DNA from: Paludibacteraceae bacterium
GTDB lineage: Bacteria > Bacteroidota > Bacteroidia > Bacteroidales > Paludibacteraceae
DNA length: 43,747 bases
Assembly: GCA_017546705.1 (NCBI GenBank)
Contig: JAFYSB010000018.1
Coordinates: forward strand, 1 to 43,747
Direction of reading: 5' to 3'
Shown: positions 221 to 36,993 of the stretch, one piece after another
Numbering within the stretch: the first letter of the stretch is position 1
Layout: each line of letters opens with the position of its first letter
Notes under the pieces: generated by a model
The model's database searches: none
The model's input: the letters and a program-made list of their open reading frames with translations, nothing else
What the model was told of the DNA's origin: nothing
Position numbers and translations under genes: made by a program

Positions 221-248
221 TGAATTAAGAATTAGGAATTTATAATTC
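221..248. repeat. Heptad repeat, family F (TGAATTA type)
   Basis: Four 7-bp units (TGAATTA, AGAATTA and two variants) lie directly after the oadB stop codon. The same family recurs at 2021-2055 and 25512-25532. No gene is visible in 218-425; it holds this repeat and two hairpins. Confidence 0.7.
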
Positions 249-278
249 TGAAATAAGGTTCACCTTATTATATATAAG

Positions 279-312
279 AGAGTGTGTCTATGATGTAGGC
301 ACACTCTTTTTT
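279..312 (+). terminator. Rho-independent terminator after oadB
   Basis: A 10-bp stem (arms 279-288 and 298-307, one T-G wobble) with a 9-nt loop runs into a T tract at 305-312. It lies 62 bp after the oadB stop, on the coding strand. Confidence 0.85.
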
Positions 313-373
313 AGGAAAAATCTTGTGCAATTCACAAAGATCCCGATTTTTAAGGATTAAATAATCCCCAACT

Positions 374-405: not shown

Positions 406-425
406 ATTGTATATACTCATTTATA

Positions 426-1022: not shown

Positions 1023-1049
1023 ATATTTTAAGATTCTTGTAATAAGAGG

Positions 1050-1556: not shown

Positions 1557-1563
1557 TGCTTAA

Positions 1564-1591
1564 GTATGAACTATGAGTGATAAGTTATAAG
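1564..1591. repeat. Heptad repeat, family G (degenerate)
   Basis: Four degenerate 7-bp units (CTATGAG, TTATAAG and relatives) fill most of the spacer between the GNAT and HAD genes. It is related to the cleaner copy at 3151-3171. Confidence 0.5.
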
Positions 1592-1596
1592 TAGTT

Positions 1597-2016: not shown

Positions 2017-2020
2017 AATT

Positions 2021-2055
2021 TTGAATTAAGAATTATGAATTTTGAATTTTGAATT
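2021..2055. repeat. Heptad repeat, family F (five units)
   Basis: Five consecutive 7-bp units, TTGAATT AAGAATT and three more of the same type, fill the 37-bp spacer between the membrane-protein stop and the HAD start. The TAA stop of the membrane protein lies inside the array. Confidence 0.75.
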
Positions 2056-2518: not shown

Positions 2519-2524
2519 ATGGTT

Positions 2525-3151
2525 CTAAAGTTTGAATTCAATGCGATTGACGATGGAGCGCCCAAGGGTGATCTCATCGGTATATTCTATCTCGTTGCCA
2601 ATAGCCACACCACGGGCGATTTGAGAAATCTTAAGTGGTGTAGTATCGTGTAGAGTTGTATTTTGCAAGCGACGGTAGATATAGAAGTTGGTGGTATCGC
2701 CTTCCATGGTGGTCGGAAGAGCGAGTATGACTTCGTGGATATCTCCGCTTTCTACGCGTTTTATTAATGAGTCGATCTCAATGTCTGAAGGGCCAACTCC
2801 GTCCATAGGGGAGATAATACCTCCTAAGACATGGTAGAGACCATTGTACTGCCCTGTATTCTCAATTGACATCACATCTTGGACATTCTCCACTACGCAT
2901 ACCGTATGTTTGTCACGCGAGTGCGACTGGCAAATAGGACATACTTCTTGATCTGAGATAGTATGGCAAACACGGCAGTATTTCACCTCTTGTTTGAGGC
3001 GGGTGATGGCACCCGTAAACGCTTCTACATCCTTATTAGGTTGGCGAAGCAAATGCAAGACCAAGCGCAATGCCGTTTTGCGTCCAATGCCTGGCAATGA
3101 AGCCACTTGGTCCACTGCATCACTCAATAATATGGATGGATAGTTGTTCAA
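2525..3151 (-). CDS. recR: Recombination mediator RecR
   Basis: RecR works with RecO (and RecF) to load RecA onto SSB-coated single-stranded gaps. The 208-residue protein shows the N-terminal helix-hairpin-helix ([19 protein letters not shown], residues 17-35), a four-cysteine zinc finger (C59, C62, C71, C74) and a Toprim domain from about residue 83 ([14 protein letters not shown]), followed by the Walker-B-like C-terminal region. The length fits the family. The start is TTG at 3149-3151: it gives MNNYPSILL, matching the usual (M)N..YPS.LL beginning, and no ATG lies nearby in frame. The start codon overlaps the edge of a heptad repeat that fills the spacer from the RelA/SpoT gene. It is the second gene of the leftward operon. 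Confidence 0.95.
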
Positions 3152-3171
3152 GTTATGAGTTATCAGTTATG
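3151..3171. repeat. Heptad repeat, family G (three units)
   Basis: Units AGTTATG AGTTATC and AGTTATG fill the spacer between the RelA/SpoT stop and the recR TTG start; the first base of the array is the T of that start codon on the coding strand. Confidence 0.7.
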
Positions 3172-3175
3172 AGTA

Positions 3176-6071: not shown

Positions 6072-6094
6072 GGAAAATACAACGTACCTTCGAG

Positions 6095-6160
6095 GAAAGT
6101 ATTAGATGGTTATTGAGTGGTGATGGAGTGGTAACGAAATGGTATCGAGAAATATAGCGG
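6095..6160. repeat. 11-bp-period degenerate array (first copy)
   Basis: Six units of 11 bp lie after rsmD, for example ATGGTTATTGA and GTGGTAACGAA. Unit by unit they resemble the array at 24673-24782 (about four positions in five identical by eye), and both keep the same order of units. There is no open gene here. Confidence 0.75.
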
Positions 6161-6163
6161 AAA

Positions 6164-6199
6164 AATAAGAGGGAGGTCAGCAATGACCTCCCTCTTATT
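6164..6199. terminator. Bidirectional terminator between rsmD and galE
   Basis: Perfect 16-bp arms (6164-6179 and 6184-6199) enclose the GNRA tetraloop GCAA. The stem begins with AATAAGAGGG, so a U-rich tail is produced from either strand. It lies 93 bp after rsmD and 19 bp beyond the galE stop. Confidence 0.9.
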
Positions 6200-6217
6200 G
6201 TAGATTGTTCGTGTCTA

Positions 6218-7247: not shown

Positions 7248-7261
7248 AGTTAACAGTTGAT
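7248..7261. repeat. Heptad repeat, family E (two units)
   Basis: Two units, AGTTAAC and AGTTGAT, between the galE start and the nucleotidyltransferase stop; same family as 11095-11129. Confidence 0.55.
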
Positions 7262-10550: not shown

Positions 10551-10564
10551 CTAAACACTAAACA
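10551..10564. repeat. Heptad repeat, family B (two units)
   Basis: Two CTAAACA units bridge the aspartate kinase start and the ribH stop; on the coding strand they supply the TAG stop codon of ribH. Same family as 31535-31562. Confidence 0.55.
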
Positions 10565-11091
10565 AGGTTTGCCATCTTAATGGCGGTCACTGCACCTTCT
10601 ATGCCTTTGTTACCGAGGCGACCACCCGCACGGTCAAGCGCTTGTTGCTTATCCAAGGTAGTGAGGACAGAGAAGATGACTGGGCAATGACGTGGAGTAT
10701 AGTAACTACCATCATTGGCTCCGCCTTGTGCATTCAGTATCGTCACTCCTTGTGTTACAGATTGACATACATAATCAAAGTGAGGTGTGTCACCTTGAAT
10801 CACACAACCGATAACAATCACTGCATCTGCATATTTGAGCATACCAAACTTCTTCTTACCACTCACATAGAGCGCAGCACCATAGGTTAGCTCTACCGTT
10901 CCAGGCACATGCATAACATCAATATTCTCCTCTAAGACACCATGCTTGAGCAAGGTATCTATCGCACCCTGTGCCAAGGCGTGGGTGATTTCGCTGTTCC
11001 AATCGGCTACTACAATAGCATAGCGCTGACGTGAAAGCACGTCAGCGCTAGGCAATTCATTCGCATTATATTGCGATAAATCAGTTGTCAT
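10558..11091 (-). CDS. ribH: 6,7-dimethyl-8-ribityllumazine synthase
   Basis: RibH condenses 5-amino-6-ribitylamino-uracil with 3,4-dihydroxy-2-butanone 4-phosphate in riboflavin synthesis. The 177-residue protein shows the substrate-binding segments VADWNSEIT (28-36), HVPGTVELTYGA (61-72), VIGCVIQGDTPHFDYVC with the catalytic His104, and FSVLTTLDKQQALDRAGG and GNKGIEGA near the end. It is somewhat longer than the common 155-residue form owing to an N-terminal extension and a loop of about 15 residues (QGGANDGSYYTPRH). No FMN riboswitch precedes it; expression probably comes from the promoter upstream of the TPR gene. The 43-bp spacer to the TPR gene is mostly five heptad repeats. Confidence 0.95.
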   Translation of the reverse strand: MTTDLSQYNANELPSADVLSRQRYAIVVADWNSEITHALAQGAIDTLLKHGVLEENIDVMHVPGTVELTYGAALYVSGKKKFGMLKYADAVIVIGCVIQGDTPHFDYVCQSVTQGVTILNAQGGANDGSYYTPRHCPVIFSVLTTLDKQQALDRAGGRLGNKGIEGAVTAIKMANLV

Positions 11092-11094
11092 AAG

Positions 11095-11129
11095 AGTTAA
11101 CAGTTAACAGTTGATAGTTAACAGTTGAT
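11095..11129. repeat. Heptad repeat, family E (five exact-period units)
   Basis: Five consecutive 7-bp units built from AGTTAAC and AGTTGAT fill 35 of the 43 bp between ribH and the TPR gene. The period is exact with no indel. Confidence 0.85.
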
Positions 11130-21200: not shown

Positions 21201-24200
21201 AATACCAACATCGTGTAGGTAGTTGCATTGGTCATTCCTGCATGCACAGTTTGTTGTTCCATGCGCTTGCGATATTGCACAGTAGGCAATGTGCCACCAG
21301 CTGCAATAGGTATGGTATAATGTTTCACTGTTGGCTCATACGCTACCAACTCAACACCATCAATCAAAATAGCTTCCAGCGAACAATCATCCGAGAGTTG
21401 CGTGTTAAATGTAAGGTGGTATTGTGCTTTGTCTTCATCTTTTATTACGTAGATTGTCAGCGTGTTACCATTGCGGAAGGTGGTGATCTCTTGTCCTTCC
21501 AAGGTGTCGCAAGTCACTGTAGGGAATGTTCCTTGATAGTTCAGTGCATAGTCATATTTATTAGGTGCAAATCCTTCCAATGCTACACCGTCAATGTATA
21601 TTTGTTGCAGCAATGCTTGATTCTCGGTAAGAGCACTTTCAAAATCAATGGTATATACGTTGCCCTCTGCGCCATATGGCTTCACACTAATCTGCGCTTG
21701 ACCTGCTGCGTATGGTGCAGCAATAGTCACTTGTTGTCCCTCTTCTTTATCCACTGTAATCACAGGGCAAGTTGTTTTGGTGAGGGTGTGGGTATATGCA
21801 AATGTTTGTGGATCAAAACCTTCCAAGGTGTCGCCATCCAAATAAATCATCTTCAAGAAGGCACTCTCCGAACGTTGAATCACGAATGTGATACTATATG
21901 TCTGGCTTCTTCCGCTCTCTGCGGTTACAGTAATGGTCTGTACATTGTTGCTGAGCAACGCCAAAATCTTCTGTGACTCATCACCCTTGTCCCATGTTAC
22001 AGTAGGAATAGTAGTTACGCCCATAGGTAGCGTATCCACATACTCCAATTGGTTTGGATCAAATCCGTCTAACTCTTTGCCGTCCAAGTAAATCATCTTC
22101 AGGCTAATATTGTCTGATGTAGCTACCGAGAAGTGGAGCACATACGTTTTGCTAGCACCTGATGGTGGACGAACTGTAATCTTATAATCACCATTGATAC
22201 CGTCAGAACGTACGGTAACAGTTTGATATTCATCGCCTTGATCGTATGTGACTACTGGTAATTCGGTTGTTCCTTGTGGCAGTGGACAATTATATTCCAA
22301 TATGTCAGGATCAAAGCCTTCCAATGGCTTCCCGTCTAGATAAATCATCTTCAACGAAGCATTCGTTGCTTGCGCCACGCTAAATGCAATGTTGTATATG
22401 GTACTTGCTCCATTTTGAGCTGTTACAGTGATGCGTGTTGTTCCGTTCAGTCCGCCCTTAATAATACTTACAGATTGATATTCATCACCTTTATCTACTG
22501 TAATCTCTGGCAACTCTGCCGTTCCAATAGGCAATGCATAGGTATAATTTGTTACATTTGGAGCGAAATTTGTTAATGGCTCGCCACCAATATAGATCAT
22601 ATTTAATGTTGAGATCTCTGATAAAGCGGTGGTCACATCAATCTTATACTCCGTAGTGTTGATGCCGTTGCCAGCTGTAACTTTCACACGTGTGATACCA
22701 TTCAGTCCACCCTCTGTTACTTCTACCGTTTGGGTTGATTCTCCCTTGACATAAGTTACTTGTGGCAGCACAGTTGTACCCACAGGAAGCTTAACGTAGT
22801 ATGTCAGATTCTCAGGTGTGAAATTGCTAATCATATCACCCATTTGTAAGTCTTTCAACATCGAATAGGATGAAGCCTCCAGCTTGAAGGTCATCTTGTA
22901 TATCTTAGGCGTAGGATTACCTGGTGAAGATACATTGATTTGGTATACACCACCATCAATTACGCTTGGTGCACTATATGTAATGGTTTGTGCTCCAGCT
23001 GGATATGCAGATATAGCTTCCACCGTAGGCATCGTGGTTGTGGATGTCGGCAAGGACACACGATAGGTGGTTTGGTTAGGAGTAAAGCCTGCTAGGCTCT
23101 CACCATTGATTTTAATATCCTTCAATGTGTTGTCTGCAAGCAATGCTACGCTGAAATTAACCGTATATGTCTGTTTTGTCTTTCCATCGGCTGCAGTAAC
23201 AAGGATTGTTGTTTTACCAGTTGTGCTGGTTGGCTGGGTGATTTCCACTACTTGTTCATCCTCTTGCTTATCCACAGTTACGATAGGTGCATCGGTTGTA
23301 CCGTATGGCAACTCCACGTTGTAGGATGTTAGTGTTGGCTGGAAGCCGCTGATTGCTTGACCGTTAACCAATATGCTTGCTAACTTCGCATTAGTGCTAG
23401 CTTGGCGCACAAACTTAATCTTATACGTCATGCTACTCTTGCCATCCTCTGCTTTCACGGTGATAGTGGTTGGATTGCCGTCAATCGTACCATTGCTAAT
23501 GCTAATCTCGCTACCACTCAATTCTCGACCAGAGAAAGTGACTGTTTCGCCTCTTGCATTGCTAATCTGACCAGCACCACGATAGGCTTTGAGTTCTGGA
23601 ATACTGCTGGCACTTTTACCCAGCGAATATACTTGCTCCTCTGTTGTATTGGGGTTAAAGCCTTTCCATTCTTTGCCGCCAATATAGAGTTTTTGAATCT
23701 TTGAAGAATAAATCAGTTCTACATCATCTACATACAACGCATTACCATCGTACAAACCGCTGTTAGCACGATAGTTAGGGTAGTTACTAGCAGAGAAAAT
23801 GATATTCATCATGGTAGGAGCCTCGTTGTTGAAGTAGTAGATAGGCACACGGATATTTGTCCAATTTCCGTAGGTCTTTTTTTCTCGCCACATACCTTCG
23901 GCTACCTGAGTTGCCTTTTGGTCCGTACCACATTCGTTGGCATTTAATGCCAAACGTACATCACTCTCCTCATTCGTCTGGCTAACAGATGTACAGCCGC
24001 CATTTTTGTTTTTATATTTGCTTGATTTTGCTGTACCAGACCATGCATAATATAGCAGATAGAAATCTTCTTTATCGGTATTATTACCTGTACGTTTAAT
24101 CCAAACGGACATACTATCAGGTCTGTATTTGAAATTGATACCTCCAGATGTTCCCGCAGTCGCAGTACCAGTGCTCAATCCCTCAAGATAACTCCATGGC

Positions 24201-24502
24201 TTGCCTAGAGCAAAGTAGCCAGGAGATGTCTCGGTGATTCCCATTGCACCTACTTCTGTATCTTTGACCATCATAGAGTAACTACCAGTATGGCCTGCTT
24301 CGCGATTTGCAAAGTTGAAGTTAAAGCCCACTTGGCTCACATTACTTGCATACCAGTCTTTAGGCTGAATATTACCATCAAATTGCTCGCCGCTCCAATC
24401 TTCAAATCCTGCGTTAGGCACTTGTTGGGCGAATAGAGATGAAACGCCAAATAATAAAATTAAACTACTTAAGATAAATTGTTTTAAGTAAACTTTTGTC
24501 AT
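15212..24502 (-). CDS. Giant secreted protein: two jelly-roll-like modules, about 30 cadherin-like repeats, T9SS-like tail
   Basis: The 3096-residue protein starts with a signal peptide (FILSSLILLFGVSSLFAQQ). Residues about 26-266 and 1530-1725 are two related beta-rich modules that begin VPNxxFxxW and end in a D(D/Y)-aromatic strand; they resemble the putative carbohydrate metabolism domain (PCMD) of Bacteroidales surface proteins. Each is followed by about 15 repeats of about 84 residues with the pattern L..I.(V/L).G..L.GF.P....Y.V.LP.GT, then TVTAEDG and a final Y.I.F strand. This is the cadherin-like beta-sandwich family (PF12733 type). The last 109 residues (AVYDQQGHRLFYQSV ... GKFAVKQ) look like a type IX secretion sorting domain. 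A surface-exposed adhesin or glycan-binding fibre is the likely role, by inference. No catalytic motif is seen. A promoter lies at 24595-24625. Confidence 0.9.
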   Translation of the reverse strand: MTKVYLKQFILSSLILLFGVSSLFAQQVPNAGFEDWSGEQFDGNIQPKDWYASNVSQVGFNFNFANREAGHTGSYSMMVKDTEVGAMGITETSPGYFALGKPWSYLEGLSTGTATAGTSGGINFKYRPDSMSVWIKRTGNNTDKEDFYLLYYAWSGTAKSSKYKNKNGGCTSVSQTNEESDVRLALNANECGTDQKATQVAEGMWREKKTYGNWTNIRVPIYYFNNEAPTMMNIIFSASNYPNYRANSGLYDGNALYVDDVELIYSSKIQKLYIGGKEWKGFNPNTTEEQVYSLGKSASSIPELKAYRGAGQISNARGETVTFSGRELSGSEISISNGTIDGNPTTITVKAEDGKSSMTYKIKFVRQASTNAKLASILVNGQAISGFQPTLTSYNVELPYGTTDAPIVTVDKQEDEQVVEITQPTSTTGKTTILVTAADGKTKQTYTVNFSVALLADNTLKDIKINGESLAGFTPNQTTYRVSLPTSTTTMPTVEAISAYPAGAQTITYSAPSVIDGGVYQINVSSPGNPTPKIYKMTFKLEASSYSMLKDLQMGDMISNFTPENLTYYVKLPVGTTVLPQVTYVKGESTQTVEVTEGGLNGITRVKVTAGNGINTTEYKIDVTTALSEISTLNMIYIGGEPLTNFAPNVTNYTYALPIGTAELPEITVDKGDEYQSVSIIKGGLNGTTRITVTAQNGASTIYNIAFSVAQATNASLKMIYLDGKPLEGFDPDILEYNCPLPQGTTELPVVTYDQGDEYQTVTVRSDGINGDYKITVRPPSGASKTYVLHFSVATSDNISLKMIYLDGKELDGFDPNQLEYVDTLPMGVTTIPTVTWDKGDESQKILALLSNNVQTITVTAESGRSQTYSITFVIQRSESAFLKMIYLDGDTLEGFDPQTFAYTHTLTKTTCPVITVDKEEGQQVTIAAPYAAGQAQISVKPYGAEGNVYTIDFESALTENQALLQQIYIDGVALEGFAPNKYDYALNYQGTFPTVTCDTLEGQEITTFRNGNTLTIYVIKDEDKAQYHLTFNTQLSDDCSLEAILIDGVELVAYEPTVKHYTIPIAAGGTLPTVQYRKRMEQQTVHAGMTNATTYTMLVFAANGDSTAYTLHFEKAKYSDATLLDLSVEGHSIDFEPNTFEYTLNITEEDLPALHIVARDGQHTSTHHVNKNEQNVLVVAENGNSNTYRIIYTRTISTDAYLRDILLDGVSLTDFRSDSMHYVDTLPWRTRVVPCVQPIGTDNQTITTYHSAINGTTRIHVLSADGVTSNEYTIHFPVRKSSNVALEYIELDDSRFSFTYHPDTTDYTIYLPYQETNVPLVLYAAAEAEQQIRYISRPAGQTSQLMVTAENGSQRTYNLTFVPTLSDETNVLQALKIKETGEMLDPNTFDHTVAMPYGSKQLTVEYTKSFAEQTVIVQPGGVNRPTTITVKSNRKNEANIVYTITPELNTQNPAVLKDLTVDGVSIEGFDPNRFSYIVNVTKTPSINYVIAPGVTVNATQTIKHWQATVTNQGYTNTYHIWFHFPMDKVPNTEFTEWTTCLTYTSAVKPNGWNTIADALGTHEMILIGNFNPDQMVTKSGNDAVHLKSPYSNPGGGQIPGFITLGSVSGNWGVAGSSSFSILGGISFHNTPDEMSIKYYNHTVNNHNLIQYTLTGMNGVQTLEWKDSETRSDYKEVVYDLAEANKQAGDPTLLNITLCSYSGLDGTTAATTAEMYIDYIRFKYNNTLKKIKVNGELAQRNGNNFTYTLAEAANTMIPSLEFIGEVSDQAQKVVWSDEVVSTLYAERTATITNYAEDGTSSEYTLTVQRPLDPENRLKDLLIDGKTISEFSQTKNDYEIHIPSSRRTLPDIQPIPTNHLQNVVVNYADSTYTISIKPEKGSTRRIKIRIITDLSDDTQLSAITANGISYTPEQTSYTLVADQLPTITFVKKMDGQTVDLNNGILTVTAEDGTQATYSIVLEKPMVTTTGELAAIEINGLELQSFSPSQYEYTLPQPEKVAFKRVAESDSVVFVQTSTYMEWQVIGDEQHTYRITYPTELSNDATLHAIQINNALLEGFNAQITDYTYATDSTTHLLVSSPNTASMSVEHSMKNDTLNYTYNVVAEDGTNKVYHLQILPDITNNPYLQSICLDNKQIEGFRSDSLIYTIVLPTADYKVAEPTLPSIQYTTAEPNQQVAVEYGNLGETTNLIVTSEDGTRSAIYQLLITAEPSHNAELIGIAVNGTPIEQFEPQRHYYSVQITGEEVDVTWATEDNYQTITQSINNNTCTLHVMAQDGVTTNDYVIELYHEAISDNATLSNILLNGQSFDEFEPVINEGLEFSPMQQRYTIHLPSGTEFLPEIAANLSENGQQIDINIIDWRANITVTAPDGITTNTYVLTFEAPLSSNAHLQMIYINGDSLAHFNPEQYNYFIPLPIGQEVLPNVLAITQEATQTLRDSISGLHHTIIVTAEDGTECQYMLAFTVTQSHADTLAAIYADGVLIDGFRPDSFYYSYTLPVGTRYLPELTWDKADQWQTITDNVLIDHTYERTTQINVLAMSGRKNTYTINYQVTKSDIDTLQMIYIKGDSLQGFNAQQLEYHLTLPQHDSLAPIIAYSAGDMYQQIQDTMTEYMFDGQQRGWKYTCHVSAENGNTKTYVLYFTYARILSTNSQLANIYVGGEALAGFTPEQFNYLVELVEEAATPTVLVEKAEYQQQVQILHGDTTRIIVTAEDSNYQSTYMIIFQRQQSPYSYLEAIYMNNELLEGFRVDSFEYDIELPFGTIELPLLTYDLGHAKQTVAIDTLIANLNGRTQTTIRFSVTAPDPVFSSEYDIRMMVAQNNNSRLSMLTIKGDSIANFHSDTLSYDIVYPIGTDSTELAQLSDIEAYAEDSNAVVTIIENGIDFMIQVTAQDGKAISIYTITQSILKSSDASLQMILLDSVPLYGFMSDILEYTYYINATQPQIEAITTDSTSSVEYGIFTLGEPFNIYVTAADGTECVYSINFLETTINSADIPTANDVLFRHIGGTMDVMFATLRKRVSVAVYDQQGHRLFYQSVPESDQNDATIYVNSEGIEEFMDVRTPLVTYTLPATNQCYFYVFFENETRKIASGKFAVKQ

Positions 24503-24594
24503 AACTATGTTGTTTTTTAATATTTCGTTGTTAAATGTTCATATTTTTAAGATTTTTATAAGCATTTTGTCGCATAAAAACCCAAAATAGGCTG

Positions 24595-24625
24595 CAAAAT
24601 TAATATAAACAAATGAATTGCGCAA
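24595..24625 (-). promoter_or_regulatory. Promoter of the giant surface protein (and perhaps uvrB)
   Basis: Minus strand: TTG (24623-24625), 20 bp, TAATTTTG (24595-24602). The leader to the ATG at 24502 is about 85 nt, AT-rich, with no clear Shine-Dalgarno. Confidence 0.8.
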
Positions 24626-24672
24626 ATTTTCTTCGCGCGTGCGTACATTTTATTAAATTTCGATACTTTTTT

Positions 24673-24782
24673 CCCAATATCTGTTGCTATCTTTCCGCTT
24701 TCTTTCTCGAAACTACTCCGTTACCACTTCGATACCACTCAATTACCATCCAATACTTTCCCAATACCTTTCCAATATCCAC
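24673..24782. repeat. 11-bp-period degenerate array (second copy, ten units)
   Basis: On the minus strand ten consecutive 11-bp units can be set out without gaps, for example AAAGGTATTGG, ATGGTAATTGA and GTGGTAACGGA. Units 3-8 match the six units at 6095-6160 in the same order. It lies in the 375-bp gap between the divergent giant-protein and HAD genes, outside both core promoters. Confidence 0.8.
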
Positions 24783-24810
24783 TACACTCTAAACCTTACA
24801 CTCTACACCA

Positions 24811-24838
24811 GAAAAATCGCACCAAAATGCGATTTTTC
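24811..24838. promoter_or_regulatory. Perfect hairpin abutting the HAD-gene promoter
   Basis: Eleven-bp arms (GAAAAATCGCA at 24811-24821 and its complement 24828-24838) around the 6-nt loop CCAAAA. The right arm ends one base before the -33 TTG. It ends in T's like a terminator, but no rightward gene precedes it, so it could instead be an operator site. Confidence 0.5.
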
Positions 24839-24869
24839 TTGCATATCCGCAAATTTTATTGTACCTTTG
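24839..24869 (+). promoter_or_regulatory. Promoter of the HAD hydrolase gene
   Basis: TTG (24839-24841), 20 bp, TACCTTTG (24862-24869), with the -33 box reading TTGCATAT. The ATG at 24878 is only 8 bp after the -7 box, so the message would have almost no leader. Confidence 0.85.
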
Positions 24870-24877
24870 CAATCTAA

Positions 24878-25533: not shown

Positions 25534-26010
25534 TCACATATTCGCATTGTAGTAGCGAGGATCATGCGTCACTTCATCGCCGATAAAATCGGGTATCTCA
25601 AACGATTGTTCTTCATTGTCCAACTCAATCTCTGCTACTACCAGTCCCTCGTGCTTGCCATGAAACTCATCCACTTCCCATATCAACTGTAAATTGTCAA
25701 TTGTCAACTGTAAATTGTCAACTGTTTCAGCAGGTACTATCCATCGAGTCTTGTCTATGACAGTCCCTTGGCACAGTTTCATTAGCTCTTCAGCTTCTTG
25801 CACATCAATCTCTTTTTCCCATTCGTAGCGAGCGAAATGTCCTGCTGCGGGTTTGCCTTTGATGGTAAGATAGGCTTTGTCATCGGTAATTCGCACGCGT
25901 ACTGTGCCCGTCTTTTCGCGCGATATATATCCTTGACGAATATGATAACGAGCGACAGCTAACTCCTTATAGCAGTCGCTCGTTACTAAGTATTTTCTTT
26001 CTATCTCCAT
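25534..26010 (-). CDS. CYTH / triphosphate tunnel metalloenzyme
   Basis: CYTH proteins bind triphosphates with metal ions in a beta-barrel tunnel; bacterial members mostly hydrolyse inorganic triphosphate. The 158-residue protein starts with MEIERKYLV, the EIERK motif of the family, followed by IRQGYIS, VRVRITDDKAYLTIKGK, ARYEWEKEID and, near the end, EGLVVAEIELDNEEQ and FIGDEVTHDPRYYN. Between IVP and WEVDEF the usual short turn is replaced by two copies of a 7-residue peptide, TVDNLQL TIDNLQL (residues about 96-109), encoded by exactly six heptad repeats (25684-25725). The rest of the fold looks intact. It is the last gene of the NamZ-like/FAD run and converges on the HAD gene. Confidence 0.9.
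   Translation of the reverse strand: MEIERKYLVTSDCYKELAVARYHIRQGYISREKTGTVRVRITDDKAYLTIKGKPAAGHFARYEWEKEIDVQEAEELMKLCQGTVIDKTRWIVPAETVDNLQLTIDNLQLIWEVDEFHGKHEGLVVAEIELDNEEQSFEIPDFIGDEVTHDPRYYNANM
25684..25725. repeat. Heptad repeat, family E, inside the CYTH gene (six units)
   Basis: Six perfect 7-bp units (CAACTGT, AAATTGT, CAATTGT types), 42 bp, in frame. The period makes a 7-residue peptide repeat. The intergenic relatives are at 11095-11129 and 7248-7261. Confidence 0.85.
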
Positions 26011-26052
26011 ATCTAACTTCTAACAACGAAGTGGTCTAACATCTAATAGCGC
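26011..26052. repeat. Interspersed repeat, family A (intergenic copy 1)
   Basis: On the minus strand: ATTAGAT GTTAGAC, a short GC-richer core, GTTAGAA GTTAGAT. It fills almost the whole 48-bp spacer between the FAD/Fe-S gene and the CYTH start. The same element lies inside purL at 34148-34185 and 36647-36684. Confidence 0.8.
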
Positions 26053-26058
26053 AGCCTT

Positions 26059-30851: not shown

Positions 30852-30854
30852 TCA

Positions 30855-30908
30855 ATATCTAACAGCGAAGCGATCTAACAAAAAGTGGTCTAGCGTCTAA
30901 CAGTGCAA
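30855..30908. repeat. Interspersed repeat, family A (intergenic copy 2)
   Basis: Minus strand: GTTAGAC GCTAGAC, then GTTAGAT CGCTTCGCT GTTAGAT. It fills nearly all of the 62-bp spacer between engB and the UspA-like gene. Confidence 0.7.
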
Positions 30909-30913
30909 CGGTC

Positions 30914-31531
30914 TCATCCGCGATTCGTTAAATCGCGGTTAATACCCTCGATATAGGCAATAAGCTCGGATTCACCGATACTTTTCTCTGCCGAAGTGAT
31001 GAAGATAGGAGGTAACTCCACCCATGTCTCCAAGAGTTTTTGCTTGTAACTCTCTACATTGGCAGCCAACTTTTGTTTACCTAGTTTGTCGGCTTTGGTG
31101 AAGACGATGGAGAAGGGTATCTCGTTCTCGCCCAACCATTCCATAAACTCCAAATCTATCTGCTGTGGCTCATGGCGGCAATCCACCAATACAAACAAAC
31201 TAACCAATGCCTCACGCAGTAGGCAATAACGCTCAATCATCATCTTGAGTTTAGCGCGCTGTGTCTTGCCCGCTTGCGCAAAACCGTAGCCTGGGAGATC
31301 GACCAAATGCCAATGGGTATCACTACCTGCATTAATTAGGAAGTGGTTGATAAGCAATGTCTTACCAGGCTTTTGGCTGGTCTTAGCTAACTTGGGATTA
31401 TGCGTGAGCATATTGATGAGCGAAGACTTTCCTACATTGCTTCGACCAATAAAAGCATATTCGGGAATGGTAGTCTGCGGACATTGCATAACGTCCGGAC
31501 TAGAGATTACAAAAGAAGCAGATTGTATCAT
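30914..31531 (-). CDS. engB: Ribosome-assembly GTPase EngB (YsxC/YihA)
   Basis: EngB is a small essential GTPase for late 50S subunit assembly. The 205-residue protein has G1 GRSNVGKSS (29-37), the G2 region [12 protein letters not shown]3 [11 protein letters not shown]4 [11 protein letters not shown] and G5 [10 protein letters not shown]. The N-terminal beta strand ([15 protein letters not shown]) and the length are normal. The ATG at 31529-31531 abuts a family B heptad repeat that also contains the end of cstA, giving a 12-bp spacer. It follows cstA in the leftward run. Confidence 0.95.
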
Positions 31532-31534
31532 ATT

Positions 31535-31562
31535 GTTTAGTGTTTAGAGTTTAGTGTTTAGT
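31535..31562. repeat. Heptad repeat, family B, across the cstA C-terminus
   Basis: Four 7-bp units GTTTAGT GTTTAGA and two more. The last residues of CstA (SLNTKL) and its stop lie in the array, and engB starts 3 bp after it. The same family lies inside purL at 33947-33974. Confidence 0.8.
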
Positions 31563-33052
31563 GATTGTTTTGTCCAATAGGCGAACCCACCTAACATGGC
31601 TATCGTGGTGATTCCTGCAATCAAGTATGCTACCCAACTCAGCCCAATCCTTGCAAAGTGGAAGCCTTCGGGTGCAATGAAAATATAACTTACACTGACC
31701 ATAGTCATAAATAGCGCAGGAATCAGTGCGATAAGGTAGGCGTATGGGTATTTATTCGTTGTGCGTGAGTTCTTATAGAGGAAGATGGTGCCTGCCCATA
31801 GGGTGAAGACGGCTAATGTCTGATTGGTCCAAGCGAAATAGCGCCAAACTACGTTGAAATCGACGAAAACCATACCAAATACGCACAAGAATAGCGGAAT
31901 TGCAATCATTAGTCGGTTGCGGATGGGGCGTTGACTGAGGTGCATAAAGTCCGCTACAATCAGTCGAGCCGAACGCAGTGCCGTGTCGCCCGAAGTGATA
32001 GGAGCGGCTATCACACCTATAATCGCCAATATACCACCTATCGTACCTAACCACGAACGAGATACCTTATCCACGACTAATGCTGCGATATTCTCGCCAG
32101 GGTGCGCTGCGGCAAAGGCTTGAAGCCCGTCTATTCCGTACAAACCTGCCTCTGGGTCTGCAAACATTGTCCCCGCTGCGGCTGCCCAAATCAATGCTAA
32201 GATACCTTCCGCAACCATGGCACCATAGAATATCCATCGACCTTGGCGCTCGTTGGTCACGCAGCGAGCCATTAGCGGTGATTGTGTACCATGAAAACCT
32301 GATATAGCTCCACACGCAATGCTGACAAACATCATCGGAAATAGAGGCAGACCATTCGTCTGACGATTGTGCAAACCATCGGTCAATTCGGGCATTTCTG
32401 CACCAAACCGACTAAGCATTACCACCATAATTCCGATACCCATAAAGAGCAATACACCACCGAAAATAGGGTAGAAACGTCCAATTAGTTTATCTACAGG
32501 TAACACGGTTGCTAATGTGTAGTAACCAAAGATAATCAATACCCATACAATAGGAATCAAATGCCCTTGGAAGGTCATGGTACCTAATCCCGCTAATCCT
32601 TGGAGTAGGGTAGCAGGACCTGAAAGGAAGGTAGTGGTGAGCAATACGAGCAACACGATGGATAGCAGGCGCATAAAGAGTTTGACGCCTTTGCCTAGTT
32701 CGTCACCGACGATATCAGGTAGCGAAACGCCGTCTTTACGCAAAGATATCATTCCACTGAGGTAGTCATGCACGCCGCCAGCGAATATCGTACCTAGTAC
32801 AATCCATAAGAATGCCGATGGACCATAGAAGATACCCATAATGGCACCGAAGATTGGTCCTAATCCTGCGATATTGAGGAATTGTACAAGGAAGATTCGC
32901 CACGGTTTCATTGGTACGAAGTCCACACCATCGGTCTTGGTGAGCGCAGGTGTCTGCGCCTTAGGGTCGATACCAAATACACGCTCTACGAACGTGCCGT
33001 AGAGAACAAAGCCTATCACCAGAGCAATTAGTGAGATGATAAATGTAATCAT
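31544..33052 (-). CDS. cstA: CstA-family carbon starvation / pyruvate transporter
   Basis: CstA proteins are multi-pass inner-membrane carriers; E. coli members take up pyruvate (BtsT) or peptides and pyruvate (CstA). I take the start at ATG 33050-33052 (502 residues), because the longer reading begins inside the purL terminator and adds a hydrophilic piece. About 14 hydrophobic segments are visible. Conserved pieces include YGTFVERVFGID, QFLNIAGLGPIFGAIMG, GGVHDYLSGMISLRKDG, SGFHGTQSPLMARCV and APITSGDTALRSARLIVADF. It is shorter than the 700-residue enterobacterial forms, as is usual in anaerobic Bacteroidales. The final six residues, SLNTKL, come from a heptad repeat. It follows purL after a hairpin, so it may be expressed at a lower level than purL or from an unseen promoter. 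Confidence 0.9.
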   Translation of the reverse strand: MITFIISLIALVIGFVLYGTFVERVFGIDPKAQTPALTKTDGVDFVPMKPWRIFLVQFLNIAGLGPIFGAIMGIFYGPSAFLWIVLGTIFAGGVHDYLSGMISLRKDGVSLPDIVGDELGKGVKLFMRLLSIVLLVLLTTTFLSGPATLLQGLAGLGTMTFQGHLIPIVWVLIIFGYYTLATVLPVDKLIGRFYPIFGGVLLFMGIGIMVVMLSRFGAEMPELTDGLHNRQTNGLPLFPMMFVSIACGAISGFHGTQSPLMARCVTNERQGRWIFYGAMVAEGILALIWAAAAGTMFADPEAGLYGIDGLQAFAAAHPGENIAALVVDKVSRSWLGTIGGILAIIGVIAAPITSGDTALRSARLIVADFMHLSQRPIRNRLMIAIPLFLCVFGMVFVDFNVVWRYFAWTNQTLAVFTLWAGTIFLYKNSRTTNKYPYAYLIALIPALFMTMVSVSYIFIAPEGFHFARIGLSWVAYLIAGITTIAMLGGFAYWTKQSLNTKL

Positions 33053-33099: not shown

Positions 33100-33121
33100 G
33101 GTGTTATTTAATCTCGTACTA

Positions 33122-36100
33122 TTACTTCTTGCGGAAGTATGCCACTGCGTTGTCGAACAGAGGTTGGCATTTGTTGCCAGCGATATTGGTGAACACGCCC
33201 TCTTCCCAGCGCTCGGTGTGACCCATCTTACCGAGGATCTGACCGTTGCGAGAGATGATACCCTCGATGGCATAATACGAGCCATTAGGGTTGTGAGGAG
33301 CCTCCATGGTCGCCTCACCTGTCATAGGATCGGCATAGCGGAATGCCACTTGTCCGTTCTCAAACAACTCCTTCGCCAATTCCTCATTCACCACAAACTT
33401 ACCTTCGCCGTGGCTGACTGCAATACTATGTGTATCACCTACTTGCATTCCACGGAGCCATGGGCTAGCGGTGGTAGCCACGGTAGTCGTTACCATCTGC
33501 GAGATGTGGCGGTTGATGTCATTGCGGAACAAGGTTGGAGAGTCTGGAGTAACCATACCCAGTTTGCCATAAGGCAACAATCCGCTCTTAACCAATGCTT
33601 GGAAACCGTTGCAGATACCCAGGATCAGACCACCGCGGTCGATGAGGGCTGTGATAGCTGCGCCGACCTTCTGGTTGTTGATCACGCTGGCGATGAACTT
33701 ACCACTGCCGTCTGGTTCGTCACCCGCAGAGAAACCACCCGCAAACATAAGGATATGGCAGCGGTTGATATGCTCTACCATCTCGTCGATACTCGAAAGG
33801 ACATCCTCGCCTGTGAGGTTACGGAAAATAGTAGTCTCTACCTCTGCTCCTGCACGACGCCATGCCTTGGCAGAGTCGTAGTCGCAGTTGGTGCCTGGGA
33901 AGACGGGGATATATACCAGAGGGGTTTCAACGGCGGGGCCGTTGTAGTTTAGTGTTGAGTGTTTAGTGTTTAGAGACTCGGTATCTGCTGGCATCAATGC
34001 TTGATGCTGCGCAGGGACGGCGGATGGGTAGATCTTGTCGAACTGACCACAGCATGCCTTCAGCAATGCCTCGCGTGATACGCGCTCACCATTGATAATG
34101 AGGTGGGTTCCGTCGGTGACTTCGCCTAAGTATTGGATCGCTACGCTGTTAGAAGTTAGACCGCTTTCGCTGCTAGAAGTTAGATCGCAGGTTGCTTCTA
34201 CAAGGATAGAACCATAGTTGTAGTCGAAGAGTTCGTTCTCAGCAATTTGGACATCTACTGCGAGTTCGTTACCGAAACTCATCTTAGCCAATGCCTCTGC
34301 TACGCCACCGAAACCTAGCGCAAAGGTAGCGCAAACCTTGCCAGATTGGATAGCATTGGTGGTATAAGTCCAGTTCTCTTTCAATTGCTCTACATTAGGC
34401 ATATAGTTGGCCAATGCGTTGTGCTTGATGAGGTAGAGCTTATGACCTGCTTTCTTGAGGTCGGTAGAAACCACCTTATCAGCTGGCACGGTTGTGATAC
34501 CGAAAGCAATCAAAGTTGGAGGTACGCTGATATGCTCGAAAGTACCTGACATAGAGTCTTTACCGCCGATACTTGGGAGACCGAAAGCCACTTGCATCTT
34601 GAGTGCACCGAGGAGTGCAGAGAGAGGTTTGCCATAGGCATGCTCGCTGCTCATACGCTCGAAGTACTCTTGGTAAGAGAAGCGCATGCGGCTATAATCC
34701 GCACCAGCAGCTACGACCTTGGTACATGCCTCTACGACTGCGTAAGCAGCGCTATGGTAAGGGCTCCATTCGGCAATGAATGGGTTGTAACCAAACGCCA
34801 TGACTGAAGCGGTATTGGTATAGCCATCGGTTGGAAGTTTCTGCACACTGACTTGTGTTTCAGATAGTTGCGTTTTGCCGCCGAATGGCATAAGTACGGT
34901 GCTACGTCCGATAGTGGCATCGAAATTCTCGATCAAACCTTTTTGTGAGGTGACATTGGCGTCGGACATGACCTTGAGCATTTTCTCCTCGAGGGTAGCA
35001 CCCTCTACGGTTTGCGCAAATGGGTTCTTCTCCTCTACAGGCAAGATAGCAGCAGAAGCAAAGTGTTTAGCACCTGCGCTGTCAATGAACTCACGAGTAA
35101 GGTCAGCGATGAGTTCGCCCTTGTAGAACTGACGCATGCGACCGCTGTCGGTGACATCTGCTACATGGGTATATTCGATATTGTCAAGGTGGCAATAGTG
35201 CTCCATCTCGGCACGGTCTTTGGCTTCGATGACTACCGCCATACGCTCTTGTGACTCGCTGATAGCCAGTTCGGTAGGATTGAGACCACTGTACTTGGTA
35301 GGTACACGGTCAAGGTAGATATCCAAGCCATCAGCCAACTCGCCAATAGCTACGCTGACGCCACCTGCACCGAAGTCGTTGGACTTCTTAATGAGGCGAG
35401 TAGCCTCAGGGCGACGCATAAGGCGTTGGAGCTTGCGCTCCTCTGGAGCATTACCCTTTTGTACCTCGCTACCGCAAGTCTCGAGAGAGGCTTCGGTATG
35501 CTCTTTGGATGAACCTGTAGCACCACCTACACCGTCACGACCAGTGCGACCACCAAGGAGCAGGATGATATCGCCTGCCGCAGGGCTCTCGCGGCGGATA
35601 TTGCTAGCTGGAGATGCACCTACTACAGCACCTACCTCGAGGCGTTTCGCCACATACGAAGGGTGGAAGATCTCACGCACATGGGTGGTAGCCAGACCGA
35701 TTTGGTTGCCATAGCTGGAGTAACCTGCGGCTGCCTTGCGTGAGATGATCTGCTGTGGCAGTTTACCAGGCATGGTTTCTGCTACTGGCTTATAGATATC
35801 GCCTGCGCCCGTTACGCGCATGGCTTGATAGACATAGGCACGACCAGATAGTGGGTCGCGAATCGCACCACCAAGACAGGTACTTGCGCCACCGAATGGC
35901 TCGATCTCGGTTGGGTGGTTGTGGGTCTCGTTCTTGAATTGGAGGAGCCATTTCTCGGTCTTGCCATCGACATCGACATCGATGAAGATAGAGCAAGCGT
36001 TGTTCTCTTCGCTGACCTCCATATCGTCGAGAAGACCTTTCTTGCGCAGATAACGCGCACCGATGGTAGCGAGCTCCATGAGGCAGAGTGGTTTCTCTGT

Positions 36101-36898
36101 ACGGCCCAACTCCTCGCGGATATCATGGAACATGCCAAGGGTGGACTCGATCTCATCTTTCACGAATGAGTCGTCGATCTTGATGGACTCGAGAATGGTG
36201 GTGAAAGTAGTGTGACGGCAGTGGTCAGACCAGTAGGTATCGAGGATACGGAGTTCGGTCTCGGTAGGGTTGCGTTGCTCCTTTTGGAAATAGGTGACTA
36301 CCTCGTGGAGGTCGTCGGTATTCATCGCCAATCCCCACTCTTTGCAGAATGCTGCATACTCCTCGCGTGGCATGGTGATGAAGCCATCGAGCTGTGCGAG
36401 CGGTTTGATATCTGCTGTTTGGTTTTGGGTGAGCTGAGAGAGGTCTTTCTCGCGTGACTCTACAGCGTTGATGTAGTAGTGGCGAATCTTATCTAGCTCG
36501 GCATCGGTGAGTTGCTCGTCAAAGACAAGGAGACGGCTTGAGCGGATCTCTACCTCAGCATTTGGGTCAATGAGGTGCACGCAGTCCACAGCCGAAGAGG
36601 CGCGTTGGTCGAACTGACCAGGCAAGTACTCTACGGCGAGGTACTTATTAGAAGTTAGACCGCTGTCGCTGTTAGAGGTTAGAGGTGAGATCTCGGTGAC
36701 GGTGTCGGTTACAGTCTCGCCGAAAACGCTGTAGCGGCATTGCTCGAGCAATTCTGGTGTAAAACCAAAGAGGTCATACACATTGATATAGCGAAGCGAT
36801 TGCAGGTGGAGTTGGAGGTTCTCGTTGAGTTCGTTTTTCAAACTGCGAGCCTCTACCTGAAACGCAGGACGCTTTTCTACGAAAATTCTATAGTTCAT
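33122..36898 (-). CDS. purL: Phosphoribosylformylglycinamidine synthase (single-chain PurL)
   Basis: PurL converts FGAR, glutamine and ATP to FGAM in purine synthesis. The 1258-residue protein is the large single-chain form: an N-terminal PurS-like part, a linker (SDHCRHTTF, the ATP-side signature, near residue 230), two AIRS-type halves (NHPTEIEPFGGASTCLGG and FGLPSIGGKDSMSGTF) and a C-terminal glutaminase with the triad C1096 (ILGICNGFQ), H1227 and E1229 (MGHTERW). Three stretches do not look like family sequence and are encoded by repeats also found between genes: residues about 71-84 (LTSNSDSGLTSN), 905-917 (LTSSSESGLTSN) and 975-985 (SLNTKHSTLN). All are at variable positions, the last in the linker before the glutaminase. 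The start MNYRIFVEKRPAF fits the family. It is co-transcribed with purE. Confidence 0.97.
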   Translation of the reverse strand: MNYRIFVEKRPAFQVEARSLKNELNENLQLHLQSLRYINVYDLFGFTPELLEQCRYSVFGETVTDTVTEISPLTSNSDSGLTSNKYLAVEYLPGQFDQRASSAVDCVHLIDPNAEVEIRSSRLLVFDEQLTDAELDKIRHYYINAVESREKDLSQLTQNQTADIKPLAQLDGFITMPREEYAAFCKEWGLAMNTDDLHEVVTYFQKEQRNPTETELRILDTYWSDHCRHTTFTTILESIKIDDSFVKDEIESTLGMFHDIREELGRTEKPLCLMELATIGARYLRKKGLLDDMEVSEENNACSIFIDVDVDGKTEKWLLQFKNETHNHPTEIEPFGGASTCLGGAIRDPLSGRAYVYQAMRVTGAGDIYKPVAETMPGKLPQQIISRKAAAGYSSYGNQIGLATTHVREIFHPSYVAKRLEVGAVVGASPASNIRRESPAAGDIILLLGGRTGRDGVGGATGSSKEHTEASLETCGSEVQKGNAPEERKLQRLMRRPEATRLIKKSNDFGAGGVSVAIGELADGLDIYLDRVPTKYSGLNPTELAISESQERMAVVIEAKDRAEMEHYCHLDNIEYTHVADVTDSGRMRQFYKGELIADLTREFIDSAGAKHFASAAILPVEEKNPFAQTVEGATLEEKMLKVMSDANVTSQKGLIENFDATIGRSTVLMPFGGKTQLSETQVSVQKLPTDGYTNTASVMAFGYNPFIAEWSPYHSAAYAVVEACTKVVAAGADYSRMRFSYQEYFERMSSEHAYGKPLSALLGALKMQVAFGLPSIGGKDSMSGTFEHISVPPTLIAFGITTVPADKVVSTDLKKAGHKLYLIKHNALANYMPNVEQLKENWTYTTNAIQSGKVCATFALGFGGVAEALAKMSFGNELAVDVQIAENELFDYNYGSILVEATCDLTSSSESGLTSNSVAIQYLGEVTDGTHLIINGERVSREALLKACCGQFDKIYPSAVPAQHQALMPADTESLNTKHSTLNYNGPAVETPLVYIPVFPGTNCDYDSAKAWRRAGAEVETTIFRNLTGEDVLSSIDEMVEHINRCHILMFAGGFSAGDEPDGSGKFIASVINNQKVGAAITALIDRGGLILGICNGFQALVKSGLLPYGKLGMVTPDSPTLFRNDINRHISQMVTTTVATTASPWLRGMQVGDTHSIAVSHGEGKFVVNEELAKELFENGQVAFRYADPMTGEATMEAPHNPNGSYYAIEGIISRNGQILGKMGHTERWEEGVFTNIAGNKCQPLFDNAVAYFRKK
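33947..33974. repeat. Heptad repeat, family B, inside purL (four units)
   Basis: GTTTAGT GTTGAGT and two more exact 7-bp units, in frame, encoding SLNTKHSTLN in the linker ahead of the glutaminase domain. Compare 31535-31562. Confidence 0.85.
34148..34185. repeat. Interspersed repeat, family A, inside purL (copy 3)
   Basis: GTTAGAA GTTAGAC, a 10-bp core CGCTTTCGCT, then two more 7-bp units. It matches 36647-36684 at 33 of 38 positions and encodes LTSSSESGLTSN. Confidence 0.9.
36647..36684. repeat. Interspersed repeat, family A, inside purL (copy 4)
   Basis: Same 38-bp layout as 34148-34185 (two units, core CGCTGTCGCT, two units), in the same orientation and reading frame, encoding LTSNSDSGLTSN. 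Confidence 0.9.
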
Positions 36899-36910
36899 AT
36901 TTATAATTTT

Positions 36911-36993
36911 GAGTCAGGAACAAGGAGCCAGGAGTCAAGACTTATTACTATTGTCTGGTAGTCGTTACTGATTAGTCTTGGTTCTTTGTTCTT
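36911..36993. repeat. Interspersed repeat, family C, between purE and purL
   Basis: The left arm has 7-bp units AGGAACA AGGAGCC and AGGAGTC; the right arm GTCTTGGTTCTTTGTTC is roughly complementary. It fills most of the 93-bp purE-purL spacer and includes the purE stop codon. Confidence 0.8.

What the first reader, a model, noticed from the sequence alone, without database searches (positions are those of the whole stretch)
221..36993. Many unrelated intergenic repeats share an exact 7-bp period
At least fourteen short arrays in this window are built from consecutive 7-bp units, but belong to different sequence families: A (GTTAGAA type; 26011, 30855, 34148, 36647), B (GTTTAGT; 10551, 31535, 33947), C (AGGAGTC; 30645, 36911), E (AGTTAAC; 7248, 11095, 25684), F (TTGAATT; 221, 2021, 25512) and G (AGTTATG; 1564, 3151). 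In the cleanest copies (11095-11129, 25684-25725, 2021-2055) five or six units follow without an indel. Most lie in spacers of 10-95 bp between co-directional genes and fill them almost completely. A shared period without shared sequence suggests a common mechanism of birth (slippage at a preferred length, or a helical-phase constraint, since 21 bp is two turns) and not the spread of one element. Heptanucleotide repeats (STRR) are known in cyanobacteria; I know of no description for Bacteroidales.
Basis: partly seen in the sequence, partly recalled or inferred. Interest (0 to 1): 0.8.

Follow-up and report, generated by a model that had tools for sequence, protein, structure and literature searches.

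The report
Seven-letter DNA words rewritten between species
A group of uncultured gut bacteria fills many gaps between its genes, and some loops inside its proteins, with short runs of related seven-letter DNA words, and relatives can carry different words at the same spot; such runs are known elsewhere, but the shared spelling and the replacement of whole words across a genus look new.

Summary
The period is real, but the site list is mixed. Of 17 listed sites, 9 are period-7 arrays by my score, 2 are weak and 6 show no period-7 segment. Three of four family A sites match a hairpin element. Six sites start inside called genes, three of them in purL.

In 388 kb of this genome, spacers show lag-7/14/21/28 excess not seen in genes, with 27 arrays against 0.0 simulated. 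The sister species and genus agree; 21 stretches from 16 other families have none.

Within the genus the families are not unrelated: units share RRTTNAN. Outside the genus this is only suggestive. The two commonest words show no orientation preference. Orthologous sites can carry different words; at one purL site whole words differ in phase between relatives whose nearest flanks are 88-95% alike. At ribH words follow the local tree.

Best reading: a strand-blind DNA process makes and rewrites 7-nt arrays, and selection keeps those tolerated. The enzyme is unknown. Heptamer arrays are known in cyanobacteria, Beggiatoaceae and Paludibacter: a new variant of a known kind.

The parts
216..240 (.). 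period-7 array, word TGAATTA (AATT type)
   Evidence: score 10.5, spacer
1562..1592 (.). degenerate period-7 array (family G) between two minus-strand genes
   Evidence: score 9.0
2017..2055 (.). period-7 array AATTTTG/AATTATG, fills the 37-nt operon spacer
   Evidence: score 22
3151..3174 (.). period-7 array AGTTATG/AGTTATC between a RelA_SpoT-domain gene and recR; the G014 spacer has GTTTAGA words instead
   Evidence: score 12; sister; genes
7248..7261 (.). two units AGTTAAC AGTTGAT in a 22-nt spacer
   Evidence: below array threshold
10551..10564 (.). two units CTAAACA across the ribH stop codon; three in G014
   Evidence: score 7
11091..11129 (.). period-7 array AGTTAAC/AGTTGAT in the 43-nt spacer upstream of ribH
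   Evidence: score 16.5; G014 same word and length, G348 and G319 CTATAGG-type words, G333 a plain hairpin
25685..25725 (.). period-7 array in frame inside a CYTH-domain gene (peptide TVDNLQLTIDNLQL)
26011..26058 (.). CTAAC words around other inserts (A type) filling an operon spacer; G014 has the same type
   Evidence: no period-7 segment
30645..30690 (.). AGGAGTC words plus an AAGAC...GTCTT inverted pair inside a Usp-domain gene
30852..30913 (-). A-type hairpin element TTAGATCG-CTTCG-CTGTTAGA and neighbouring words
   Evidence: 30 pattern matches genome-wide
31531..31566 (.). period-7 array GTTTAGT/GTTTAGA covering the C-terminal end and stop of a CstA gene (QSLNTKL*)
   Evidence: score 19
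33947..33973 (.). purL site 3: four GTTTAGT-type units in frame (LNTKHSTLN)
   Evidence: score 15; relatives
34148..34200 (+). purL site 2: A-type hairpin element in frame (LTSSSESGLTSN); absent in G319, G348, G014
36647..36690 (+). purL site 1: A-type hairpin element in frame (LTSNSDSGLTSN); among the 21 purL frames aligned, also in G319 only
36911..36979 (.). AGGAGTC-type words and an AAGACT...AGTCTT inverted pair in the spacer upstream of purL
   Evidence: score 8
33122..36898 (-). purL (formylglycinamide ribonucleotide amidotransferase), carrying three element sites in its open frame
   Evidence: Pfam GATase_5, AIRS_C, FGAR-AT_linker

Best explanation
These are arrays of a degenerate 7-mer, in this genus centred on RRTTNAN, made and remade at the DNA level without regard to strand. 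A lineage-specific process lays down or extends units in an exact 7-nt register and spreads unit variants along an array, and probably between arrays of one genome, so that species drift to their own 'dialects'. Selection is a filter: arrays survive in junctions between co-directional genes and at gene ends, and inside protein frames where the spelling avoids stops. Shown here: the register, the shared spelling within the genus, equal orientation of the two commonest words, dialects, word replacement at one fixed site, and the density in spacers against genes. Inferred: that the process is slipped-strand or template-switch synthesis with copying between arrays. The enzyme is unknown.
For: Period-7 arrays (score 10 or more): 27 in 30.2 kb of spacer here (simulated 0.0; gene density scaled to the same length 1.9), 25 in 35.4 kb in sister G014, 11 in 18.7 kb in 16 stretches of 16 further same-genus genomes, 0 in 22.1 kb from 21 stretches of 16 other families. 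In 721 kb of this genome: 46 arrays in 53 kb of spacer, 33 in 642 kb of called genes. Shared spelling: 61 distinct units align with 5.20 bits against 4.32 +/- 0.08 and 4.46 +/- 0.10 in controls; an alignment made from this genome and G014 alone (36 units) again gives RRTTNAN and scores 6 new units of other species of the genus above controls (9 and 14 of 1000 reach it). Orientation to mRNA 5:5 for AAACACT and 3:3 for AACTGTC. Dialects: overlapping GTTTAGW x3 matches 69 here and 3, 6, 3, 11, 8 in G348, G319, G333, G354, G014. purL site 3: L176 and L178 differ at all four units in two heptad phases (0 of 20,000 random placements) with nearest flank windows 88-95% alike; all six B- and C-word arrays have TCA or TCG where the third unit would give an in-frame TAA (by eye). 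Site-3 words need 5 changes on the purL tree (minimum 2; 300 label shuffles mean 4.43) and 5 on trees of 60-480 nt flanks.
Against: At ribH the words follow the local gene trees (G000 with G014, G348 with G319), so words can be inherited with their flanks. At purL site 2 words need 3-4 changes (minimum 3) and same-word species have more similar 60-nt flanks (0.870 against 0.774). Site 3 rests on nine scored species and weakly supported local trees; in the 120-nt flank tree G000 groups near L176 and L178, so short recombination tracts may carry words. In-phase tests that involve G000 itself are weak (439 to 1428 of 20,000 placements reach them). Outside the genus the spelling is only suggestive: scored with the model trained on this genome and G014, 19 new units exceed GC-matched spacer heptamers in all but 30 of 1000 draws and letter shuffles in all but 77 of 1000. 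The plain pattern count, 8 of 19 against 2.2, used a pattern I had read off an alignment that included those units. Some words are one-sided: AATTATG 3:0 here, AACTCAT 5:1 in G014. GGTTARA counts do not separate all relatives (5 here, 13 G319, 17 G014, 9 G333, but 3 G348 and 1 G354). Arrays hug gene edges, which could point to a function. No enzyme was found.
Confidence: 0.42

Rival explanations
1. Plain replication slippage at a preferred length of about 7 nt, from random seeds, with later point mutation (Mrazek's proposal as cited by MacGregor; the first reader's first idea).
For: Exact period 7 with few arrays at 4-6 and 8-10 (0-3 each here; up to 9, at period 9, in G014); identity falls with unit distance in the sister species; heptamers reported as the commonest long SSR in most genomes (passages).
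Against: Units within the genus share a spelling. Few words dominate this genome: AAACACT 12, AACTGTC 7, AATTATG 5 of 46 arrays. Words change in phase in all four units between L176 and L178. A second peak sits at 11 bp.
Confidence: 0.22
2. Small palindromic mobile elements (REP-, MITE- or Rickettsia-palindromic-element-like) whose arms are heptads; plain arrays are their remains.
For: Constant flanks around variable inserts: TTTAGTGAACG-[insert]-CTACTGTTTAG 24 times here, in 7 of 61 genus genomes; TTAGAYCG-[insert]-CTGTTAGA 30 times here, in 35 of 61. In the sampled stretches, B-type inserts of 7 nt or more here form stems of 3 or more in 9 of 9, H-type in G014 in 7 of 7, A-type in 1 of 2 here and 3 of 5 in G014. 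In-frame insertions in purL are absent from relatives.
Against: No Y1/RAYT match in G000, G014, G024 or G348 (PF01797; 22 of 61 genomes match, 18 over the cut-off). Of 43 array-bearing spacers here only 7 hold a hairpin match. Stretches of six other-family genomes with heptads gave no match to my five hairpin regexes.
Confidence: 0.2
3. RNA-level control sites for translation of the downstream gene, as proposed for TAACTGA repeats in Beggiatoaceae.
For: 25 of 27 arrays here lie between co-directional genes. In the genus 53 co-directional arrays end within 12 nt of the next start more often than random placement (0.55 against 0.43, p 0.008), though they also begin near the upstream stop (0.40 against 0.31, p 0.027); 16 arrays of other families show no start bias (p 0.87).
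Against: Both orientations equally used for the two commonest words; arrays inside coding sequences; different words at the same junction in sister species. RNA folding energy equals column-permuted controls here, is somewhat lower in G014 and higher in other families.
Confidence: 0.1
4. Selection for stop codons in all frames between operon genes.
For: Arrays here and in G014 have stops in 2.25-2.49 of 3 frames on either strand against 1.68 for column-permuted arrays.
Against: Other families show no excess (1.47 and 1.67 against 1.79); antisense stops serve no such purpose; spacers were defined as non-ORF, which favours stops.
Confidence: 0.05

Closest known systems
TAACTGA heptamer direct repeats of Beggiatoaceae, Cyanobacteria and five Bacteroidetes (MacGregor 2015, PMC4679880; abstract, passages, sections 8 and 15 seen)
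   Same: 7-nt direct repeats, mostly intergenic, many just upstream of starts; some inside ORFs in the stop-free orientation; Paludibacter is on its list
   Different: one exact word there, its one-base neighbours rarely repeated; here several words of one grammar, both orientations, and species dialects. TAACTGA is not the consensus unit of any of 46 + 46 arrays, though single units occur (AGTTATC in the array at 3151)
Degenerate heptanucleotide repeats of the Nostoc trnL intron P6b stem, Class I TDNGATT and Class II NNTGAGT (Kaasalainen 2015, PMC4476775; abstract, outline and passages seen)
   Same: one word class repeatedly replaced by another at a fixed site, against the phylogeny; all spellings of Class I contain RRTT
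   Different: a single paired RNA stem in an intron; here dozens of arrays in spacers and protein genes
GGGAATC and GGGGA(T/C)T repeats of Xanthomonas and Nostoc (Rehm 2015, PMC4692102; passages seen)
   Same: intergenic heptamers at many loci, with length and sequence varying between relatives
   Different: G-rich, studied as G-quadruplex formers
Long simple sequence repeats, heptamers most abundant (Mrazek 2007; not held; known only through the papers above)
   Same: period 7
   Different: no shared unit grammar in the passages I saw
Rickettsia palindromic elements (MITE review PMC10969869; passages seen)
   Same: palindromic elements inserted in frame in unrelated genes
   Different: about 150 bp there; net gains of 24 and 30 nt at purL sites 1 and 2 here, with heptad arms

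Membership tests
Intergenic heptanucleotide tandem repeats (STRR / LSSR type) | tandem 7-nt units above chance, mainly intergenic | tested here: met
TAACTGA repeats (MacGregor) | unit TAACTGA | tested here: not met
   not the consensus unit of any of 46 + 46 arrays
TAACTGA repeats (MacGregor) | forward orientation to the downstream start | tested here: not met
   5:5 and 3:3 for the two commonest words here; a few rarer words are one-sided
REP elements with RAYT | Y1 transposase in the genome | tested here: not met
   PF01797 without match in G000, G014, G024; G000 is 90% complete
REP elements with RAYT | GTRG foot at the hairpin (recalled) | tested here: inconclusive
   B-type hairpins have GTAG at one foot, A-type do not (by eye)
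Rickettsia palindromic elements | palindromic element in frame in unrelated genes | tested here: met
   A-type elements in frame at two purL sites; an AAGAC...GTCTT pair in a Usp-domain gene
Rickettsia palindromic elements | about 150 bp long | tested here: not met
   net gain against G348 of 8 residues (site 1) and 10 residues (site 2) (alignment); spans were capped by the patterns
trnL P6b heptanucleotide repeats | lie in the tRNA-Leu group I intron | tested here: not met
   window arrays lie in spacers and protein genes
trnL P6b heptanucleotide repeats | word-class replacement at one site against phylogeny | tested here: met
   purL site 3; not so at ribH and hardly at purL site 2

The most novel reading that the evidence does not exclude
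A dedicated, possibly template-copying, enzyme writes 7-nt RRTTNAN words and overwrites existing arrays genome by genome, so that dispersed arrays change dialect together without their flanks. A related grammar in other Bacteroidales families (suggestive only) and in published heptamers (RRTT in TAACTGA, all spellings of TDNGATT, GGGAATC, GGGGATT and GTGATTA; not in GGGGACT, and in 4 of 16 spellings of NNTGAGT) would reflect one widespread mechanism.
Probability: 0.08. Interest if true: 0.9.

Novelty: new variant of a known kind. Interest (0 to 1): 0.6.

Why it matters
Heptamer repeats are known in several phyla without an agreed cause. A clade in which they are dense, share one degenerate spelling and can change word at a fixed site between species about 80% alike at four-fold sites makes the cause testable: slippage, copying between arrays, or selection predict different changes between strains. 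It also shows a purine-synthesis enzyme (PurL) tolerating repeated rewriting of a loop.

Tried and rejected
Helical phase: no rise of identity at 21 bp. REP/RAYT: no Y1 match in the element-rich genomes G000, G014, G024. RNA-level control: no orientation preference for the two commonest words, no folding signal in this genome. Sister comparison as a measure of speed: G000 and G014 have four-fold identity 0.44 in the first gene tested and 0.57 in purL, so I moved to closer relatives through purL. Presence of arrays at 54 orthologous co-directional spacers is uncorrelated between G000 and G014 (both 4, own only 11, sister only 8, neither 31; Fisher p 0.72). The first stretches fetched from relatives had almost no synteny with the window; later ones had some. 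ribH first looked like a second conflict with the tree; its local trees showed ordinary inheritance. The tool's control (pattern read backwards) shares words with the pattern and is not independent. The gene caller is a simple longest-ORF script, so some of the 33 'genic' arrays may sit in false ORFs kept open by the array. The six other-family genomes were chosen from pattern or control hits and are biased towards arrays; the unbiased sample is.
Full report
What the window is. It is positions 1-43747 of contig C18 in a 2.1-Mb, 82-contig genome. The closest named purL relatives are ruminant-gut metagenome genomes labelled Paludibacteraceae (RGIG3829, RGIG5388, RGIG4248) and a Bacteroidales SIG114. 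Ca. Colicola coprequi, a Paludibacteraceae, is further off.

The observation. I scored self-matches at offset 7 (match +1, mismatch -1.5). The window has 9 segments of score 9 or more against a mean of 0.30 in 40 order-2 Markov shuffles. Of 17 listed sites, 9 reach that score, 2 are weak and 6 show nothing. The four family A sites hold GTTAGA words around other inserts; three match a hairpin regex. Six sites start inside called genes, three in purL, and two more run over gene ends.

Genome scale. In 388 kb of this genome (21 stretches, window included), spacer autocorrelation exceeds base shuffles at lags 7, 14, 21 and 28 (z 11.9, 5.9, 6.8, 3.8), at 1, 2 and 3 (13.7, 11.5, 7.7), at 11 (6.4) and less at a few others. 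Genes show only the codon period. Arrays of score 10 or more at period 7: 27 in 30.2 kb of spacer, simulated 0.0; 25 in 35.4 kb in sister G014; 11 in 18.7 kb in 16 stretches of 16 other same-genus genomes; 0 in 22.1 kb from 21 stretches of 16 other families. Period 11 is a second peak (16, 17, 8, 2 in the same four groups). In other families heptads are patchy: the AGTTRAY word hits 16 of 295 genomes of the order, 52 times in G144 but never in its congeners G025 and G242. In stretches of six other-family genomes picked from pattern or control hits I found 31 arrays in 28.8 kb of spacer.

Where they sit. In this genome 25 of 27 period-7 arrays lie between co-directional genes (20.4 of 30.2 kb). 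Of 16 period-11 arrays, 9 are in co-directional, 1 in convergent and 6 in divergent spacers. In the genus, 55% of 53 co-directional arrays end within 12 nt of the next start against 43% expected (p 0.008), and 40% begin within 5 nt of the upstream gene against 31% (p 0.027); 16 arrays of other families show no start bias (p 0.87). In 721 kb, density is 46 in 53 kb of spacer and 33 in 642 kb of called genes. Of the 33 genic arrays, 4 supply the stop at a C-terminus (such as SLNTKH*); the others are read through without stops, often as QLSTVNC-like peptides.

One grammar, within the genus. 61 distinct units from all groups align, with free rotation and strand, to NAAYYNT (the other strand of RRTTNAN), with 5.20 bits against 4.32 +/- 0.08 and 4.46 +/- 0.10 in two controls. 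Distinct units are partly related by descent, so these controls are generous. RRTTNAN fits 19 of 36 units of this genome and G014 (controls 4.9 and 6.9) and 8 of 19 other-family units (controls 2.2 and 2.9; 0 and 1 of 1000 reach it), but I had read the pattern off an alignment that included the latter. Trained on this genome and G014 alone, the model again reads ANRRTTN. With it, 6 new units of the genus score above GC-matched spacer heptamers (9 of 1000 reach them) and letter shuffles (14 of 1000), while 19 other-family units do so only weakly (30 and 77 of 1000). Of published words, TAACTGA, GGGAATC, GGGGATT, GTGATTA and all 12 spellings of TDNGATT contain RRTT; GGGGACT does not, and 4 of 16 spellings of NNTGAGT do. 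Only 4 of 12 TDNGATT spellings fit full RRTTNAN.

Strand and stops. AAACACT arrays are 5 sense and 5 antisense, AACTGTC arrays 3 and 3; AATTATG is 3:0 here and AACTCAT 5:1 in G014. Over all words, 24 RRTT-sense against 15 here and 20 against 14 in G014, ties apart. Stops occur in 2.25-2.49 of 3 frames on both strands here and in G014 against 1.68 for permuted arrays, but not in other families.

Hairpin elements. B words flank GAACG-[insert]-CTACTG, A words flank YCG-[insert]-CTG, and G014 has TATAGGACG-[insert]-CTATAGG. Inserts vary while staying self-complementary: of inserts of 7 nt or more, stems of 3 or more in 9 of 9 B-type here, 7 of 7 H-type in G014, 1 of 2 A-type here and 3 of 5 A-type in G014. 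Whole-genome pattern counts: B type 24 here, 4 in G014, in 7 of 61 genomes; A type 30 here, 30 in G014, 91 in G024, in 35 of 61. Of 43 array-bearing spacers here 7 hold a hairpin match. No Y1 transposase match in G000, G014 or G024.

Dialects and rewriting. In 54 orthologous co-directional spacers between G000 and G014, arrays occur in both 4 times, only here 11 times, only there 8 times, neither 31. Words can differ at one junction, for example seven GTTTAG units against GGTTAAA/GGCGAAA. Overlapping matches to three GTTTAGW units number 69 here and 3-11 in five near relatives; GGTTARA is 5 here, 13, 17 and 9 in G319, G014 and G333, but 3 and 1 in G348 and G354. purL gives a view with alignable flanks. 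At site 3, G000 and L176 have CTAAACA; G319, G348, L177 and L178 have CCTYTAA; G333, G354 and G014 have CCTMATM-like words of 7 and 8 nt. L176, L177, L178, G333 and G354 are 0.78-0.85 identical at four-fold sites. L176 and L178 differ at all four units in phases 1 and 3 and once in phase 4, and nowhere else, which 0 of 20,000 random placements reproduce; for L176 against G319, G348 and L177 it is 5, 22 and 28, and for G000 against the same group 439 to 1428. Site-3 words need 5 changes on the purL tree (minimum 2; shuffled labels mean 4.43) and on trees of the 60-480 nt flanks; flank identity is 0.80-0.84 for same-word and 0.82-0.85 for different-word pairs. At site 2, A elements (G000, G333, and a CTACC-spelled version in L177), GCC words (G354, L176, and another spelling in L178) and element-free forms (G319, G348, G014) occupy one position, with 3-4 changes (minimum 3).

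Results against my reading. At ribH the words follow the local gene trees, and purL site 2 roughly follows its flanks, so arrays are also inherited normally. Site 3 has nine scored species and weak local trees, and short recombination tracts remain possible. B- and C-word arrays at site 3 differ by only 1-2 of 28 bases between species that share the word, less than four-fold sites would give, which could mean constraint.

Mechanism. The most economical account is a strand-blind DNA process that works in 7-nt steps with a preferred spelling and homogenises units, filtered by selection in genes and junctions. Slippage alone does not give the shared spelling or the in-phase swap. An RNA-control role does not fit the equal orientations. 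A mobile palindrome explains the hairpins but not the 36 of 43 array-bearing spacers without one. The enzyme, and the copying between arrays, are inferred.

Novelty. Heptamer direct repeats are known (MacGregor 2015; Rehm 2015; Mrazek 2007 only as cited), including two sets in Paludibacter. Word-class replacement at one site is known in the Nostoc trnL intron (Kaasalainen 2015). In the listings of ten searches of the open PMC library I saw no account of a shared RRTTNAN grammar, of dialects, or of heptads in this genus; one search was too broad to be informative, and most subscription papers are not held.

Noticed in passing
L018:1405-1697, L020:5148-5571, L045:12546-12864 and others; window 6072-6217 and 24503-24877: A second class of arrays with period 11, with different unit sequences, often in long spacers; 16, 17 and 8 arrays in the own, sister and genus samples.
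   Followed up: partly
   Followed up: partly
window 37913-38092: 1.8 identical copies of a 98-bp unit beside the tRNA-Ser gene at 37814-37901.
   Followed up: no
window 15212-24502: A 3096-aa open frame, parts of it 46-61% identical to parts of frames in G014; domains not searched.
   Followed up: no
G354 purL site 2 (L157): An in-frame insert with an apparent long hairpin inside purL, absent from the otherwise similar L176 array.
   Followed up: no
G229, G294, G129 (other families): Many ARTTGAY-type heptads with no or almost no AGTTRAY ones, seen through the reversed control pattern; a few arrays read.
   Followed up: partly
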